Assembly (NCBI RefSeq): GCF_900105155.1
Contig: NZ_LT629762.1
Span: forward strand, 744,001-808,000
DNA length: 64,000 bases
Source of the DNA: Pseudomonas prosekii
GTDB lineage: Bacteria; Pseudomonadota; Gammaproteobacteria; Pseudomonadales; Pseudomonadaceae
Reading direction: 5' to 3'
In this document: positions 38,725 through 44,661 of the stretch, in pieces
How positions within the stretch are numbered: the first letter of the stretch is position 1
How the letters are laid out: each line of letters opens with the position of its first letter
The notes under the pieces: generated by a model
The model's database searches: none
Told to the model about the DNA's origin: nothing
What the model saw: only the letters and a program-made list of their open reading frames with translations
Made by a program: the position numbers and the translations under genes

Positions 38725-38740
38725 TGGCATATGCCTTGCA
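38725..38740 (+). promoter_or_regulatory. Sigma-54-type promoter of nasS-nasT
   Basis: CTGGCATATGCCTTGCA matches YTGGCAC-N5-TTGCA at all but one position (T for C), with GG and GC at exact spacing. The predicted start, about 38751, is 21 bases before the ANTAR leader hairpin P1. Confidence 0.7.
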
Positions 38741-38771
38741 CTCTCATTGCTATCAGCTCATGACATCAGCG

Positions 38772-38855
38772 CTCCTGCCAATGGCGGCAGGAGTCAAAAG
38801 ACAATGGCGTCGTCACCCGGTTCTGCTCGGCAGTCATCGGGAACGGCGCTTTTTT
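38772..38855 (+). promoter_or_regulatory. ANTAR-target leader with terminator, upstream of nasS
   Basis: Hairpin P1: CTCCTGCC-AATGGC-GGCAGGAG (38772-38793). Hairpin P2: GAC-AATGGC-GTC (38800-38811). Both have six-base loops with A at position 1 and G at position 4, the ANTAR dual-hairpin signature. A terminator stem GCGTCGT (38807-38813) plus CCCG pairs with CGGG plus ACGGCGC (38843-38849), then six T. The terminator uses the 3' side of P2, so binding by NasT would favour antitermination. The T run ends right before an in-frame ATG (38856) and 19 bases before the chosen nasS ATG. Confidence 0.8.
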
Positions 38856-38873
38856 ATGCACGGTGGACACCCG

Positions 38874-40085
38874 ATGAATCAAACCACAGCGGGCCCGCTG
38901 GCCTGGGTCAATGGCAGCGATGCCCCGGAAAAGTCCGCGATCAACGTAGGATTCATGGCCCTGAGCGACTGCGCCTCGGTGGTGGTCGCCGCCACTCAGG
39001 GCTTCGCCCAACCGTATGGCTTGACCATCAACCTCAAGCGCCAATCGTCGTGGGCCAACCTGCGCGACAAACTGGTCAGCGGCGAACTCGACGCCGCGCA
39101 CAGCCTTTATGGACTGATCTACGCCGTGCATCTGGGCATCGGCGGCGTAGCGCCGACCGACATGGCGGTGCTCATGGGCCTGAACCAGAATGGCCAGAGC
39201 ATCAATCTGTCCCACGGTTTGCAGGCGCTCGGGGTGACCAGTCCTGAAGCACTCGACCGGCACGTGCACCAAACTCGCGCGAAACTGACCTTCGCTCAGA
39301 CTTTTCCGACAGGCACTCACGCGATGTGGCTGTATTACTGGCTCGCGAGCCAGGGCATTCATCCCTTGCACGATGTCGACAGCGTGGTGGTGCCGCCGCC
39401 ACAAATGGTCGCGCACTTGCAGGCTGGGCGGATCGACGGGTTTTGCGTCGGCGAACCGTGGAGCGCCAGCGCGGTGAAACAGAACCTCGGGTTCACCATG
39501 GCAACGACCCAGACCATCTGGCCCGATCACCCGGAAAAAGTCCTCGGTTGCAGCCGCGCCTTCGTCGAGCAATACCCCAACACTGCGCGGGCACTGGTAA
39601 TGGCGATTCTCGAAGCGAGCCGTTTCATCGAACAAAGCACCGAGAATCGTCGCAGCACCGCGCAGCTGTTAAGTGCCCCCGAATACCTCGACGCGCCGGT
39701 GGATTGCATCGAGCCGCGGCTGCTCGGCGATTACGCCGATGGCTTGGGCAATCGCTGGCAAGACCCGCACGCCGTGCGTTTCCATGGCGGCGGCGCGGTG
39801 AATCTGCCGTATCTGTCGGACGGCATGTGGTTCATGACCCAGTTCCGCCGCTGGGGTTTGCTGCGCGACGACCCGGATTACCTCGGCGTGGCGCGCAAGG
39901 TCCAGCAACTGGATGTGTACCGTGAGGCCGCGACGGCGCTGGGCATCGCCACGCCGGACGAGCACATGCGCAGCAGTCAGTTGAACGACGGCAAGGTCTG
40001 GGACGGTTCGGACCCGGCCGGTTACGCGCGCAGCTTCAAACTGCACGCCATGAGCGACAGCTCGCCCCTTCTCGCCAGCCGCTGA
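38874..40085 (+). CDS. nasS: Nitrate/nitrite-sensing protein NasS
   Basis: A 403-residue protein of the NrtA/CmpA/NasS solute-binding family without a signal peptide, so cytoplasmic, as expected for NasS, which holds NasT inactive until nitrate binds. Recognisable segments are INVGFMALSDCASVVVA, KLVSGELDAAHSLYGLIYAV and GRIDGFCVGEPWSA. The ATG at 38874 has GGTGGA upstream; ATG 38856 six codons earlier is possible. nasT follows after 15 bases. Its own mRNA has an ANTAR leader, so NasS-NasT probably control their own synthesis. Confidence 0.92.
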   Translation: MNQTTAGPLAWVNGSDAPEKSAINVGFMALSDCASVVVAATQGFAQPYGLTINLKRQSSWANLRDKLVSGELDAAHSLYGLIYAVHLGIGGVAPTDMAVLMGLNQNGQSINLSHGLQALGVTSPEALDRHVHQTRAKLTFAQTFPTGTHAMWLYYWLASQGIHPLHDVDSVVVPPPQMVAHLQAGRIDGFCVGEPWSASAVKQNLGFTMATTQTIWPDHPEKVLGCSRAFVEQYPNTARALVMAILEASRFIEQSTENRRSTAQLLSAPEYLDAPVDCIEPRLLGDYADGLGNRWQDPHAVRFHGGGAVNLPYLSDGMWFMTQFRRWGLLRDDPDYLGVARKVQQLDVYREAATALGIATPDEHMRSSQLNDGKVWDGSDPAGYARSFKLHAMSDSSPLLASR

Positions 40086-40100
40086 CAGGAGACTGCGAAT

Positions 40101-40676
40101 ATGTTGCGAATCCTCCTGATCAACGACACCGCAAAGAAAGTCGGGCGATTGAAAGCGGCGCTGACTGAGGCTGGTTTCGAGGTGATCGACGAATCGGGCC
40201 TGACCATCGACTTGCCCGCGCGCGTCGAAACGGTGCGCCCGGACGTGATTTTGATCGATACCGAGTCACCGAGCCGCGATGTCATGGAACAAGTGGTGCT
40301 GGTCAGCCGCGATCAGCCACGACCGATTGTGATGTTTACCGACGAGCACGACCCCGACGTGATGCGCCAGGCGATCAAATCGGGCGTCAGCGCCTATATC
40401 GTCGAAGGCATTCACGCGCAGCGTTTGCAGCCAATTCTCGATGTGGCGATGGCGCGATTTGAGAGCGATCAGGCGTTGCGCGCGCAGTTGCATGCGCGGG
40501 ATCAGCAACTGGCCGAACGCAAGCGCATCGAGCTGGCCAAGGGGCTGCTGATGAAAATGAAGGACTGCAACGAGGAAGCGGCCTACACGCTGATGCGCCG
40601 CCAAGCGATGAGCCGCCAGCAGAAGCTGATTCAAGTCGCGGAACAGATTATTGCGATGAGTGAGTTGCTCGGCTGA
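40101..40676 (+). CDS. nasT: ANTAR-domain antitermination regulator NasT
   Basis: A 191-residue RNA-binding regulator: a receiver-like domain (1-118) and a C-terminal ANTAR domain (about 125-187; LAERKRIELAKGLLMKMKD...YTLMRRQAMSRQQKLIQVA). D53 is present in the receiver domain but the usual paired acidic residues near the N-terminus are reduced to ND, in line with control by NasS binding rather than phosphorylation. It should bind the two dual-hairpin leaders found here, before nasS and before the transporter, and prevent termination. RBS AGGAG. Confidence 0.95.
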   Translation: MLRILLINDTAKKVGRLKAALTEAGFEVIDESGLTIDLPARVETVRPDVILIDTESPSRDVMEQVVLVSRDQPRPIVMFTDEHDPDVMRQAIKSGVSAYIVEGIHAQRLQPILDVAMARFESDQALRAQLHARDQQLAERKRIELAKGLLMKMKDCNEEAAYTLMRRQAMSRQQKLIQVAEQIIAMSELLG

Positions 40677-40734: not shown

Positions 40735-40750
40735 TGGCACAGTTCTCGCT
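40735..40750 (+). promoter_or_regulatory. Sigma-54-type promoter of the nitrate transporter gene
   Basis: TTGGCACAGTTCTCGCT: full -24 element TGGCAC, five-base spacer and TCGCT at -12 (one mismatch to TTGCT), invariant GG and GC in place. The expected start near 40761 lies 4 bases before hairpin P1 of the leader. Confidence 0.75.
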
Positions 40751-40764
40751 AAGTAATCACCACA

Positions 40765-40849
40765 GGTAACCAACGGCGGTTGCCCCACCTACGACAAAGA
40801 CGTCGCTCACCTCGTTCGCCCATGGCGGATTCGGTGGCGGCGTTTTTTT
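40765..40849 (+). promoter_or_regulatory. ANTAR-target leader with terminator, upstream of the nitrate transporter
   Basis: P1: GGTAACC-AACGGC-GGTTGCC (40765-40784, one G-T pair). P2: CGAC-AAAGAC-GTCG (40792-40805). Both six-base loops have A1 and G4. The terminator pairs CGTCGC-T-CACC (from 40801) with GGTG-GCGGCG (40833-40842) and is followed by seven T; it uses the 3' side of P2. This is the same design as before nasS but with different stem sequences, so the structure is conserved while the bases are not. Confidence 0.85.
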
Positions 40850-40949
40850 GTTTTGGCCCCGAATGACGGGGCCGGTGGTGCGGCCGTGGCGGCGCCCCAC
40901 CTGCAAGCTCATGACTCCTTCTCGAGACTCCCTACAGCTGAGGTGCGCG

Positions 40950-42161
40950 ATGAATTCAAGCTTCTGGAAATCCGGCCATACCCCGACTTTGTTCGCGGCA
41001 TTCCTCTATTTCGACCTGAGTTTCATGGTCTGGTACCTGCTCGGGCCGCTGGCGGTGCAAATCGCTACCGACCTGCAATTGACTACCCAGCAACGCGGCA
41101 TGGTCGTCGCTACGCCGATCCTCGCCGGCGCCGTGCTGCGCTTCGCCATGGGCCTGCTGGCTGATCGCCTGTCGCCAAAAACCGCCGGAATCATTGGTCA
41201 GGTAATTGTCATCTGCGCACTGTTCGGCGCCTGGAAACTCGGGATCCACAGCTACGAACAGGCGCTGGTGCTGGGCCTGTTCCTCGGTATGGCCGGCGCC
41301 TCGTTCGCCGTCGCCCTGCCGTTGGCCTCGCAATGGTATCCGCCGCAGCATCAGGGCAAAGCGCTGGGCATCGCCGGCGCCGGCAACTCGGGCACCGTCC
41401 TCGCCGCGTTGATCGCGCCGGTACTGGCGGCCTCGTTCGGCTGGAGCAATGTGTTCGGCTTCGCGTTGATTCCGCTGATCCTGACCCTGTTCGTCTTCAC
41501 CTGGCTGGCGAAAAACGCCCCGCAACGGCCGAAAGCCAAGTCCATGGCCGACTACCTAAAAGCCCTCGGCGATCGTGACAGCTGGTGGTTCATGTTTTTC
41601 TACAGCGTGACCTTCGGCGGTTTCATCGGTCTGGCCAGCGCCCTGCCCGGCTACTTCAACGACCAATATGGTCTCAGCCCGGTCGCCGCCGGTTACTACA
41701 CGGCGGCGTGCGTGTTCGGCGGGAGCTTGATGCGGCCATTGGGCGGCGCGCTGGCGGATCGTTTCGGCGGCATTCGCACGTTGCTGGGGATGTACACGGT
41801 GGCGGCGATTTGCATTGCAGCGGTCGGTTTCAACCTGCCAAGTTCCTACGCCGCACTGGCACTTTTCGTCTGCACCATGCTCGGCCTGGGCGCCGGTAAT
41901 GGCGCGGTTTTCCAGTTGGTGCCGCAACGTTTCCGCCGCGAAATCGGCGTGATGACCGGGCTGATCGGCATGGCCGGCGGCATCGGCGGTTTTGCCCTCG
42001 CCGCCGGCATGGGCGCGATCAAGCAAAGCACCGGCAGCTATCAAATGGCCCTGTGGTTGTTCGCCAGCCTTGGCGTGCTCGCCTGGTTTGGTTTGCACGG
42101 GGTAAAACGGCGCTGGAGGACCACTTGGGGTTCGGCAGCAGTCACGGCGGCGCGGGTCTGA
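40950..42161 (+). CDS. nasA: Nitrate/nitrite transporter of the NarK/NasA type (MFS)
   Basis: A 403-residue major-facilitator protein with about 12 helices. Two NNP-family signatures are visible, GIAGAGNSGTVLAALI and GLGAGNGAVFQLVPQRF. It imports nitrate and probably nitrite for assimilation. The ATG at 40950 has GAGGTG upstream; the longer frame runs through the leader and is not coding. Sigma-54-type promoter and ANTAR leader upstream. The name follows common Pseudomonas use; note nasA elsewhere denotes the nitrate reductase. Confidence 0.9.
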   Translation: MNSSFWKSGHTPTLFAAFLYFDLSFMVWYLLGPLAVQIATDLQLTTQQRGMVVATPILAGAVLRFAMGLLADRLSPKTAGIIGQVIVICALFGAWKLGIHSYEQALVLGLFLGMAGASFAVALPLASQWYPPQHQGKALGIAGAGNSGTVLAALIAPVLAASFGWSNVFGFALIPLILTLFVFTWLAKNAPQRPKAKSMADYLKALGDRDSWWFMFFYSVTFGGFIGLASALPGYFNDQYGLSPVAAGYYTAACVFGGSLMRPLGGALADRFGGIRTLLGMYTVAAICIAAVGFNLPSSYAALALFVCTMLGLGAGNGAVFQLVPQRFRREIGVMTGLIGMAGGIGGFALAAGMGAIKQSTGSYQMALWLFASLGVLAWFGLHGVKRRWRTTWGSAAVTAARV

Positions 42162-42168
42162 AACCTGA

Positions 42169-43839
42169 ATGAGCCTGCAACTGAGTTTCGCCGAAGCCAG
42201 CGCCATCGGCCCGCGCGAGGAGAATCAGGACGCGCTGCGCCTGGTCACCCCGGCCCCGGCGCTGGCCGCGAGCAAGGGTTATTTGTTCGCGATTGCCGAC
42301 GGCGTCAGCCAATGCGCCGATGGCGGGCTCGCCGCGCGTTCGACCTTGCAGGCGTTGGCGCTGGACTATTACGCCACGCCGCAAACCTGGGGCGTCGCGC
42401 AGGCAATGGAGCGTTTGCTCTCGGCGCAAAATCGCTGGTTACTGGCCAATGGCGGCGGGCAACCGCTGCTGACCACGGTCAGCGCTCTGGTCATGCGCGG
42501 CAGGCGTTTTACCCTCGCGCATGTAGGCGATTGCCGAGTCTATCGCTGGCACGCCGATCAGTTGCAGCGGATCAGTGAAGATCACGTCTGGGACCAGCAA
42601 GGCATGCAGCACGTCCTCAAACGCGCGCTGGGGCTGGATCAACATCTGGTGCTGGATTTCCTTGACGGCGAGTTACGCCTCGACGAGACATTTGTGCTGC
42701 TCAGTGATGGCGTCTGGGCAGTGCTCGGCGACACCGCGATTGCGGCCATTCTGCGCGATCAACCGAACCTCGACAGCGCCGCGCAAACGCTGGTCAACGC
42801 CGCGCACCTGGCCGGCAGCCAGGACAACGCCAGCGCCCTGCTGGTGCGGATCGATGCCCTCGGCGAAACCAACATCGGCGATGCGCTGATTCATTTGCAG
42901 CAATGGCCGCTGCCACCGGCGCTGAAACCGGGCCAGACTTTTGAAGGCTGGCAAGTCGAGGGCCTCCTCGGCCAGAGCCAGCAGTCGCTGCTGTATCGAG
43001 TGCGCGACGCGCAGCACCAGCCTTGGCTGCTGAAAACCTTGCCCGCGCACTGGCACGACGATCACCTCGCCGGGCAAGCGCTGCTTTCGGAAGAATGGTT
43101 TCTAAAACGCGTTGCCGGGCAACATTTCCCGCAAGTCCATGCCGCCACTCAGCGTCAGCATTTGTACTACGTGATGCGCGAATACTCCGGGCAGAACCTC
43201 GCCGAGTTGCACCGGCAAGCCGGGCCTTTGCCGCTGGCACAGTGGCGCGAACTGGCCGAACGCCTGCTGCGTGCGGTCGGCATGCTGCATCGTCGGCAAA
43301 TCCTGCACCGCGACATCAAACCGGAAAACCTGCTGTTGGGCGATGACGGCGAGTTGCGTCTGCTGGATTTCGGCCTCGCCTATTGCCCCGGTCTCTCCGA
43401 AGACCAGCCCAGTGCTTTGCCCGGCACACCGAGTTACATCGCGCCAGAAGCCTTTCGCGGCGAAGCGCCGACTGCGCAACAGGATCTGTACGCGGTGGGC
43501 GTGACCCTGTTTTTTCTGCTGACCGGCCACTACCCCTACGGCGAAATCGAGGCGTTCCAGCGCCCGCGTTTCGGCGCGCCGGTGAGCGCCAGTCGTTATC
43601 GTCCCGATGTCCCGGAATGGCTGGTGACCAGCCTGGAGCGCGGCGTCGCGGTGGATCCGCAGCAGCGTTTCGAAACCGCTGAAGAGTGGTTGTTGCTGCT
43701 GGAACAGGGTGAGCGACGCAGTTTGAGCGTGCGGCCCAAGCCGTTGCTGGAGCGCGAACCGCTGAAGGTCTGGCGGACGTTGGCGCTGGGGTCGCTGGTG
43801 GCGAATCTGTTGCTGTTGTTCCTGTTTTTGCATGGCTGA
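42169..43839 (+). CDS. Fused PP2C phosphatase - Ser/Thr protein kinase
   Basis: A 556-residue bifunctional protein. The N-terminal PP2C domain (about 1-240) keeps the metal-binding motifs (REENQDAL, FAIADGVSQCADG, LAHVGDCRVY, VLLSDGVWAV, QDNASAL). The kinase domain (about 265-520) has HRDIKPEN (D382), DFG, and APE; the glycine loop is degenerate (GLLGQSQQS). A single C-terminal helix (about 533-553) anchors it to the membrane. It begins 7 bases after the transporter, in the same operon. A kinase of this type sits in Pseudomonas nitrate-assimilation clusters; its target is unknown. Regulation of transporter or reductase is a guess. Confidence 0.9.
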   Translation: MSLQLSFAEASAIGPREENQDALRLVTPAPALAASKGYLFAIADGVSQCADGGLAARSTLQALALDYYATPQTWGVAQAMERLLSAQNRWLLANGGGQPLLTTVSALVMRGRRFTLAHVGDCRVYRWHADQLQRISEDHVWDQQGMQHVLKRALGLDQHLVLDFLDGELRLDETFVLLSDGVWAVLGDTAIAAILRDQPNLDSAAQTLVNAAHLAGSQDNASALLVRIDALGETNIGDALIHLQQWPLPPALKPGQTFEGWQVEGLLGQSQQSLLYRVRDAQHQPWLLKTLPAHWHDDHLAGQALLSEEWFLKRVAGQHFPQVHAATQRQHLYYVMREYSGQNLAELHRQAGPLPLAQWRELAERLLRAVGMLHRRQILHRDIKPENLLLGDDGELRLLDFGLAYCPGLSEDQPSALPGTPSYIAPEAFRGEAPTAQQDLYAVGVTLFFLLTGHYPYGEIEAFQRPRFGAPVSASRYRPDVPEWLVTSLERGVAVDPQQRFETAEEWLLLLEQGERRSLSVRPKPLLEREPLKVWRTLALGSLVANLLLLFLFLHG

Positions 43840-43896
43840 GCGCTGCGTACTGATCGCAGCCCCAGTCATTCGCCGTTATCTCGTGAGGAAAACACT

Positions 43897-44661
43897 ATGA
43901 GCGCAAAAGTCTGGCTGGTGGGTGCGGGCCCCGGCGATCCGGAATTGCTGACCCTGAAAGCGGTTCGAGCCTTGAGAGAGGCCGACGTGGTGTTGATCGA
44001 CGACCTGGTCAACGAGGCTGTGCTCGAACATTGCCCGGCTGCGCGGATTATTGCGGTGGGCAAACGCGGCGGCTGTCGCTCCACGCCTCAGGCGTTTATT
44101 CATCGGCTAATGCTGCGTTATGCCCACCACGGCAAGTGCGTGGTGCGGCTCAAGGGTGGCGATCCATGCATTTTCGGGCGTGGCGGTGAAGAGGCGCAGT
44201 GGCTGCGCGAGCGCGGGGTCGACGTCGAGCTGGTCAATGGCATTACCGCTGGCCTGGCAGGCGCAACGCAGTGTGCGATTCCGCTGACCCTGCGCGGTGT
44301 GGCGCGCGGCGTAACGCTGTTGACCGCGCACACGCAGGACGACAGCAGTCTGAACTGGCAGGCCTTGGCGCAAAGTGGCACGACGTTGGTGATTTACATG
44401 GGCGTAGCGAAGTTGAGCGAGATCCGCGAACAACTATTGGCGGGTGGCATGGCCATGGACACGCCGGTGGCGATGATCGAGAACGCCTCCCTGCCGCATC
44501 AGCGCGAATGCCGGAGTGTTCTGACAAACATGGAGGACGACGCCTACAGCTTCGCGCTGAAGAGCCCGGCTATTCTGGTGATCGGTGCAGTAGCAGCCTG
44601 CAAGACTTCCTCCCCGTGGGAGCATGGCTTGCCCGCGATGAGTTCCGAGCAAACAGCCTGA
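43897..44661 (+). CDS. cobA: Uroporphyrinogen-III C-methyltransferase
   Basis: A 254-residue SAM-dependent enzyme making precorrin-2, the precursor of sirohaem needed by nitrite reductase. Present are the N-terminal VWLVGAGPGDPELLTLKA, the VVRLKGGDPCIFGRGGEEA motif and ITAGLAGATQCAIPLTLRG. The SUMT fold ends near AILVIGAV; the last about 21 residues (AACKTSSPWEHGLPAMSSEQ and two more) are a translation of a REP element and are unlike the family. The usual nirB-nirD reductase genes are missing just upstream. Confidence 0.93.
   Translation: MSAKVWLVGAGPGDPELLTLKAVRALREADVVLIDDLVNEAVLEHCPAARIIAVGKRGGCRSTPQAFIHRLMLRYAHHGKCVVRLKGGDPCIFGRGGEEAQWLRERGVDVELVNGITAGLAGATQCAIPLTLRGVARGVTLLTAHTQDDSSLNWQALAQSGTTLVIYMGVAKLSEIREQLLAGGMAMDTPVAMIENASLPHQRECRSVLTNMEDDAYSFALKSPAILVIGAVAACKTSSPWEHGLPAMSSEQTA
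44612..44642. repeat. Half REP element inside the 3' end of cobA
   Basis: CCCGTGGGAGCATGGCTTGC and CCGCGATGA form a single family A REP unit read in frame as PWEHGLPAM. It extends cobA by about 20 codons. Confidence 0.7.

What the first reader, a model, noticed from the sequence alone, without database searches (positions are those of the whole stretch)
38725..38873. nasS-nasT mRNA carries its own ANTAR antitermination leader behind a sigma-54-type promoter
Seen: CTGGCATATGCCTTGCA (38725-38740 core), two hairpins with identical AATGGC loops, and a terminator that shares bases with the second hairpin and ends in six T just before the coding region. Known: ANTAR proteins bind paired six-base-loop hairpins (A1, G4) and stop termination; NasT is such a protein and is released from NasS by nitrate. 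Inferred: the sensor pair controls its own synthesis, giving positive feedback when nitrate is present and nitrogen is short. Autoregulation by leader is less commonly described than control of the structural genes.
Basis: partly seen in the sequence, partly recalled or inferred. Interest (0 to 1): 0.75.

Follow-up and report, generated by a model that had tools for sequence, protein, structure and literature searches.

The report
NasT-type leader on NasT's own mRNA
In most of the Pseudomonas genomes examined that have them, the genes for the nitrate-sensing pair NasS and NasT are preceded by a conserved two-hairpin-and-terminator leader that NasT itself is predicted to bind, so nitrate would likely raise the production of its own sensor when nitrogen is short.

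Summary
Upstream of nasS-nasT lie a sigma-54-type box (38725-38739), two hairpins with AATGGC loops (P1 38771-38794, P2 38800-38811) and a terminator (38806-38850, T run to 38855) that reuses P2's 3' half and ends 18 nt before the nasS ATG. It is not chance: 61 of 80 named Pseudomonas/Stutzerimonas nasS loci carry the P2 element there, and P1 shows strong compensatory change (106 cells against 41.9 in shuffles). An independent Rfam model (narK RNA) finds the site as its third-best match in the whole genome, below Rfam's cut-off. The genome search found one ANTAR protein, NasT. Best explanation: NasT antiterminates its own operon, a nitrate-dependent positive loop gated by nitrogen shortage through sigma-54. 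Binding, start site and read-through are inferred. All 8 P. putida-group loci lack the leader but keep the promoter box and the nasA leader, a natural comparison. The RNA element is of a known kind; its place on the regulator's own mRNA was not described in the passages I could search, but key papers were not held. In passing: two Rfam families (narK RNA, P11) look like sigma-54/NasT leaders of nasA and nirB.

The parts
38725..38739 (+). sigma-54-type promoter box TGGC-N7-TTGC; predicted start about 38751
   Evidence: sequence; the box type is present in 76 of 81 upstream stretches against 0 of 243 controls
38751..38873 (+). predicted untranslated leader of nasS-nasT (start inferred from the box)
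   Evidence: inference from box spacing; fold
38771..38794 (+). hairpin P1, 9-pair stem, loop AATGGC 38780-38785
   Evidence: fold; covariation: 8 of 9 pairs with changes on both sides; loop A1 in 58 of 60 and G4 in 57 of 60 rows
38800..38811 (+). hairpin P2, GAC-AATGGC-GTC, loop 38803-38808
   Evidence: fold; stem invariant in 60 rows, but rows were chosen by a P2 pattern
38806..38855 (+). intrinsic terminator overlapping P2: stem 38806-38813 with 38843-38850, T run 38850-38855
   Evidence: fold -25.0 kcal/mol; base of stem 98.1% paired in 60 rows, 3 of 7 pairs with changes on both sides
38874..40085 (+). nasS, nitrate-sensor protein of the NMT1_2 family
   Evidence: PF13379 E 1.3e-95
40101..40676 (+). 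nasT, receiver-like domain plus ANTAR RNA-binding domain; 15 nt after nasS
   Evidence: PF03861 E 1.1e-15; only ANTAR match found in the genome
40735..40850 (+). sister leader before the NarK-type transporter gene nasA: box TGGCACAGTTCTCGC, hairpins with loops AACGGC (40772) and AAAGAC (40796), terminator
   Evidence: RF03032 82.4 bits; R1 50.5 bits; hexaloops
40950..42161 (+). nasA, NarK-family nitrate/nitrite MFS transporter, predicted NasT target
   Evidence: PF07690; TIGR00886 311.4 bits, just under its cut-off of 311.7

Best explanation
The nasS-nasT genes are preceded by a conserved sigma-54 box and a leader with two ANTAR-type hairpins and an overlapping terminator, and NasT likely binds these hairpins to let transcription of its own operon read through when nitrate has freed it from NasS. 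Steps: nitrogen shortage is predicted to activate the sigma-54 promoter (NtrC-type control, inferred); RNA polymerase makes P1 and P2 (shown as conserved sequence and predicted fold); without free NasT the terminator, much more stable than P2, would form and stop transcription about 18 nt before nasS (inferred); with nitrate, NasS would release NasT (shown by others in Paracoccus), which would hold P2 closed and prevent the terminator (inferred). The result would be a positive loop that makes NasT together with its own inhibitor NasS, so that induction is quick with nitrate and shut-off quick without it (inferred).
For: Anatomy. Covariation: P1 has 8 of 9 pairs with changes on both sides; for the structure P1+P2 106 such cells against 41.9 +- 6.3 in shuffles and at most 22 in slid controls. 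The terminator base is 98.1% paired, 3 of 7 pairs compensated. P1 loop A1 in 58 of 60 and G4 in 57 of 60 rows, not used for selection, while loop position 3 varies freely and position 5 partly. Independent model: RF03032 gives the site 28.1 bits, third best in the genome at E 0.006, finds the nasS leader in 8 of 8 leader-bearing loci and 0 of 3 leaderless ones at E<=0.5, and in 6 of 8 more deeply branching loci at E<=0.1, two of them the same as. Breadth: a leader model (R1) match lies just upstream of nasS in at least 87 of 127 nasS-bearing genus genomes (searches compared by eye; listing capped). R1 matches occur in 126 of 127 genomes with nasS and 3 of 22 without. One ANTAR protein in the genome. 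NasT of Paracoccus binds a nasA leader and is freed from NasS by nitrate (PMC3795266, passages). nasS and nasT fell about 83- to 121-fold in P. aeruginosa ntrB/ntrC mutants (PMC7214821, passages).
Against: No binding, start-site or read-through data for this leader. The RF03032 score is below its gathering score (28.1 against 43.2). The window's box-to-P2 distance (75 nt) is unusual. A strict scan found no P1 in 8 of 62 rows, and the third P1 pair is unpaired in 31 of 58 rows. 19 of 80 named loci lack the P2 pattern, so the loop is dispensable in some lineages. With the predicted 5' end included, the best fold of 38751-38811 does not form P2. No NtrC site could be shown. In Paracoccus nasTS transcripts were similar with nitrate and glutamate (PMC5424462, passages); in P. 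putida the rise of nasT in an rpoN mutant was 4.0-fold, not significant, against 7.25-fold in wild type (PMC7801951, passages).
Confidence: 0.85

Rival explanations
1. The leader is a NasT target, but has no physiological feedback role: NtrC/sigma-54 sets nasST levels and the terminator only trims expression in all conditions.
For: P. putida-group loci (8 of 8) keep the box and lack the leader; nasS/nasT depend strongly on NtrBC in P. aeruginosa.
Against: Loop letters A1 and G4 and P1 pairing are kept across at least 8 genus codes of the family, which a mere attenuator would not need.
Confidence: 0.2
2. The stretch is a plain terminator or chance hairpin, with no ANTAR recognition.
For: RF03032 below cut-off in the window; TGGC-N7-TTGC is common in the window.
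Against: Covariation and position controls; RF03032 passes its cut-off on the nasS leaders of L079, L081 and L073 (46.9, 46.7, 44.0 bits).
Confidence: 0.03
3. The terminated leader also acts in trans, as a small RNA or a NasT sponge, like EutX for EutV.
For: NalA, a nitrate-assimilation leader with sigma-54 boxes and a terminator, was described as a small RNA (PMC3973561, passages); EutX sequesters EutV (PMC5821096, passages).
Confidence: 0.08

Closest known systems
ANTAR dual-hairpin antitermination leaders (eut, nasF, amiE; PMC3369931, passages seen)
   Same: two hairpins with six-base loops, A at 1 and G at 4, short linker, terminator overlapping P2
   Different: sits on the mRNA of the ANTAR regulator and its sensor rather than on structural genes alone
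NalA, leader of nirBD in P. aeruginosa (recalled, Romeo 2012 not held; P. protegens homologue in PMC3973561, passages)
   Same: sigma-54 box, leader, terminator, NasT-dependent operon
   Different: precedes the nitrite reductase operon, not nasS-nasT
Rfam RF03032 narK RNA
   Same: box, P1 with AACGGC loop, AAAGAC element; it matches the nasA leader 2 kb downstream at 82.4 bits
   Different: the window's nasS leader scores below its cut-off
NtrC-controlled nasT promoter of Paracoccus (PMC5424462, passages)
   Same: nitrogen-limitation control of the nasT/nasS genes
   Different: no NasT-binding leader before nasT was mentioned in the passages seen

Membership tests
ANTAR-target dual-hairpin leader | two hairpins, at least three pairs each, with six-base loops | tested here: met
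   P1 9 pairs, P2 3 pairs
ANTAR-target dual-hairpin leader | A at loop position 1 and G at position 4 in both loops | tested here: met
   both loops AATGGC in the window; P1 A1 58 of 60, G4 57 of 60 rows; P2 fixed by the selection pattern
ANTAR-target dual-hairpin leader | intrinsic terminator overlapping P2 | tested here: met
   stem 38806-38813/38843-38850 shares 38806-38811 with P2
ANTAR-target dual-hairpin leader | an ANTAR protein in the same genome | tested here: met
   one match, NasT
ANTAR-target dual-hairpin leader | protein binding and antitermination | not testable with these tools
   needs bench work
Rfam RF03032 narK RNA | gathering score 43.2 bits | tested here: not met
   28.1 bits in the window; met by nasS leaders of L079, L081, L073
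Rfam RF00625 P11 | gathering score 70 bits | tested here: not met
   no match at E<=0.1 in the window's genome
sigma-54 promoter | TGGC-N7-TTGC, conserved in place | tested here: met
sigma-54 promoter | upstream activator (NtrC) site | tested here: inconclusive
   weak palindromes inside pyrD coding DNA; enrichment for some consensus forms (11 of 76 against 1.1 for the longest) cannot be told from coding conservation
NasS-NasT regulatory pair | adjacent NMT1_2-type sensor and receiver-ANTAR protein | tested here: met
NasS-NasT regulatory pair | nitrate-dependent dissociation | not testable with these tools
   shown in Paracoccus (PMC3795266, passages)

The most novel reading that the evidence does not exclude
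NasS-NasT is an RNA-level latch: sigma-54 arms it when nitrogen is short, nitrate trips it, and NasT then amplifies its own operon by antitermination while making NasS for rapid reset, giving switch-like or hysteretic nitrate commitment in leader-bearing Pseudomonas and a graded response in the P. putida group that lost the leader. The Rfam families narK RNA and P11 and the nasS leader are one class of sigma-54/NasT leaders.
Probability: 0.35. Interest if true: 0.65.

Novelty: new member of a known kind. Interest (0 to 1): 0.52.

Why it matters
If true, the nitrate sensor of many pseudomonads is wired as a self-amplifying switch by an RNA element that can be removed without touching the proteins, and closely related lineages with and without it already exist, so the value of the feedback can be tested directly. 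It also gives a likely identity to two Rfam families named only by position or by number.

Tried and rejected
A plain attenuator or chance hairpin was rejected on covariation and position controls.

A leader before nasS outside the family was considered: RF03032 hits upstream of '56% NasS' in G169 and G021 turned out to lie before a transporter binding protein with a twin-arginine-type signal, followed by a transport permease and ATPase, so they are target operons, not nasS. The G026 stretch gave no clear gene order.

An NtrC site search was inconclusive. Whole-genome search with the leader model R1 found nasS and nasA and one marginal place (C1:1084531, E 0.158, not followed up), but not nasC or nirB; those two were seen by eye and scored 29.2 bits (E 2.9e-4) and 19.3 bits (E 0.088).

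Searches for prior description (listings) and passages of 12 papers (PMC3369931, PMC3795266, PMC12316311, PMC5424462, PMC7261876, PMC8443478, PMC7801951, PMC6759348, PMC7214821, PMC5821096, PMC3973561, PMC8164766) showed no account of a nasS-nasT leader. Passages only; no paper was read whole. Wang 2012, Romeo 2012 and Weinberg 2017 are not held, Gutierrez 1995 was seen only as a reference, and the supplementary tables of PMC3369931, which list ANTAR targets in Pseudomonas, could not be opened. So priority is not settled.

Full report
What is there. Between the divergent pyrD (Pfam/NCBIfam dihydroorotate dehydrogenase) and nasS lies a sigma-54-type box TGGCATATGCCTTGC (38725-38739). It predicts a start near 38751. 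Then come hairpin P1 (38771-38794) and hairpin P2 (38800-38811), both with the loop AATGGC, and a terminator whose 5' arm (38806-38813) takes over P2's loop end and 3' arm. The T run ends at 38855, 18 nt before the nasS ATG at 38874. nasT follows nasS after 15 nt. NasT has a receiver-like and an ANTAR domain and is the only ANTAR match found in the 6.09-Mb genome.

Is it more than chance. I fetched 80 named relatives of nasS (the best 80 of 596 confirmed places). 61 of 80 hold the P2 pattern upstream of nasS; all of these but L084 have a T run of five or more within that stretch. After dropping two identical rows, 60 rows including the window were aligned. P1 was not used for selection. It has changes on both sides in 8 of 9 pairs; over P1 and P2 there are 106 such cells against 41.9 +- 6.3 in shuffles and at most 22 in slid controls. 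Related rows count many times, so these are not independent events. P2's stem is invariant and so says nothing by covariation. The base of the terminator is 98.1% paired with 3 of 7 pairs compensated. In the P1 loop A1 stands in 58 of 60 and G4 in 57 of 60 rows, while position 3 varies. L044 (P. libanensis), outside the 60, has P2 as CAC-ATAGGC-GTG, a swapped outer pair, but a broken T run.

An independent test. Rfam's narK RNA model matches the nasA leader at 82.4 bits and the nasS leader at 28.1 bits, below its cut-off of 43.2, E 0.001 locally and 0.006 genome-wide, the third-best place in the genome. In a picked set it found the nasS leader in 8 of 8 leader-bearing loci and 0 of 3 leaderless ones (E<=0.5). 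In 8 more deeply branching loci it found 6 (E<=0.1), three over the cut-off (L079 and L081 are in both sets).

Spread. A covariance model of the leader (R1) was run on 149 genus genomes. Setting the nasS listing beside the R1 listing by eye, at least 87 of 127 nasS-bearing genomes have a match on the same strand just upstream of nasS; the R1 listing is capped, so this is a lower bound. R1 matches of any place occur in 126 of 127 genomes with nasS and in 3 of 22 without (p 6e-20; relatedness not corrected). In 119 family genomes at least 51 of 82 with a NasS match have it, in eight genus codes; in genus code g2 0 of 11 show one in the capped listing. Some NasS matches there, at 58-64% identity, may be transporter paralogues.

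Loss. On a NasS+NasT tree of 82 rows the label needs 8 changes against 18.0 in shuffles. The eight P. putida-group rows, one supported clade, all lack the leader, yet keep a sigma-54 box close to nasS and keep a leader match between nasT and nasA (8 of 8). The three rows named or grouping as Stutzerimonas, and P. lopnurensis, also lack it. So the trans-acting system persists without this cis element.

The rest of the regulon. The nasA leader (40735-40850) has loops AACGGC and AAAGAC. At 5.51 Mb divergent nasC and nirB have leaders of this kind by eye: nirB with perfect stems and loops ATAGAT and AAAGAC; nasC with a P1 loop AACGCT but a mismatched P2. Model support is fair for nasC (29.2 bits; RF03032 57.3) and weak for nirB (19.3 bits).

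Mechanism. Predicted energies fit a protein-dependent switch: P2 adds about 1 kcal/mol to P1, while the terminator is worth -25. With the predicted 5' end included, the best fold of the upstream part does not even form P2, so NasT would have to hold it. Nitrate-driven release of NasT from NasS and its binding to a nasA leader are published for Paracoccus (PMC3795266, passages). Dependence of nasS and nasT on NtrBC or NtrC is published for P. aeruginosa (PMC7214821) and P. stutzeri (PMC8443478), and sigma-54 promoters before genes of NasT's orthologous group have been predicted (PMC12316311). No sigma-70-type match was found around the leader. An NtrC site was not demonstrated.

What is known and what is new. 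The RNA element meets the sequence criteria of ANTAR targets (PMC3369931, passages). What I did not find described, in the searches listed under Tried and rejected, is its place on the nasS-nasT mRNA; but the most relevant papers (Wang 2012, Romeo 2012) and the supplementary target lists could not be opened. I therefore call it a new member of a known kind, with the feedback wiring as its interest.

Noticed in passing
window 40735-40806; L002, L003: Rfam RF03032 'narK RNA' begins with a sigma-54-like box (GGCaCAgcucUUGC) and holds two A1/G4 hexaloop elements: it looks like a sigma-54 promoter plus NasT target. Of 274 class genomes 13 have a match and 12 of these 13 also have an ANTAR protein, against 87 of 274 overall; the exception is G101.
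   Followed up: partly
L197-L216: Rfam RF00625 'Pseudomonas sRNA P11' has the same make-up (UUGGCACAagcaCUGC box, CAACGau loop, GGAC-AAAGGC-GUCC, overlapping terminator). 82 of 149 genus genomes are over its cut-off; in 20 of 20 fetched loci a NirB-like frame follows. Probably the nirB leader (NalA); whether this is already in print is not settled.
   Followed up: partly
window 40950-44661; L003: In this genome nirB and nasC are not between the kinase gene and cobA, where P11/nirB follows nasA in many relatives; a NirB only 37-39% identical to the relatives' lies at 5.51 Mb, divergent from nasC, with its own leaders.
   Followed up: partly
L044:2377-2473: P. libanensis P2 has a swapped outer pair (CAC-ATAGGC-GTG), with a weakened T run: perhaps a decaying leader.
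   Followed up: no
alignment A1, columns 23/35: The third P1 pair from the loop is unpaired in 31 of 58 rows, often G opposite A or G: a possible conserved bulge in P1 of many Pseudomonas.
   Followed up: no
G000:C1:1084531-1084613: A third, marginal match of the leader model in the genome (22.3 bits, E 0.158), unexamined.
   Followed up: no
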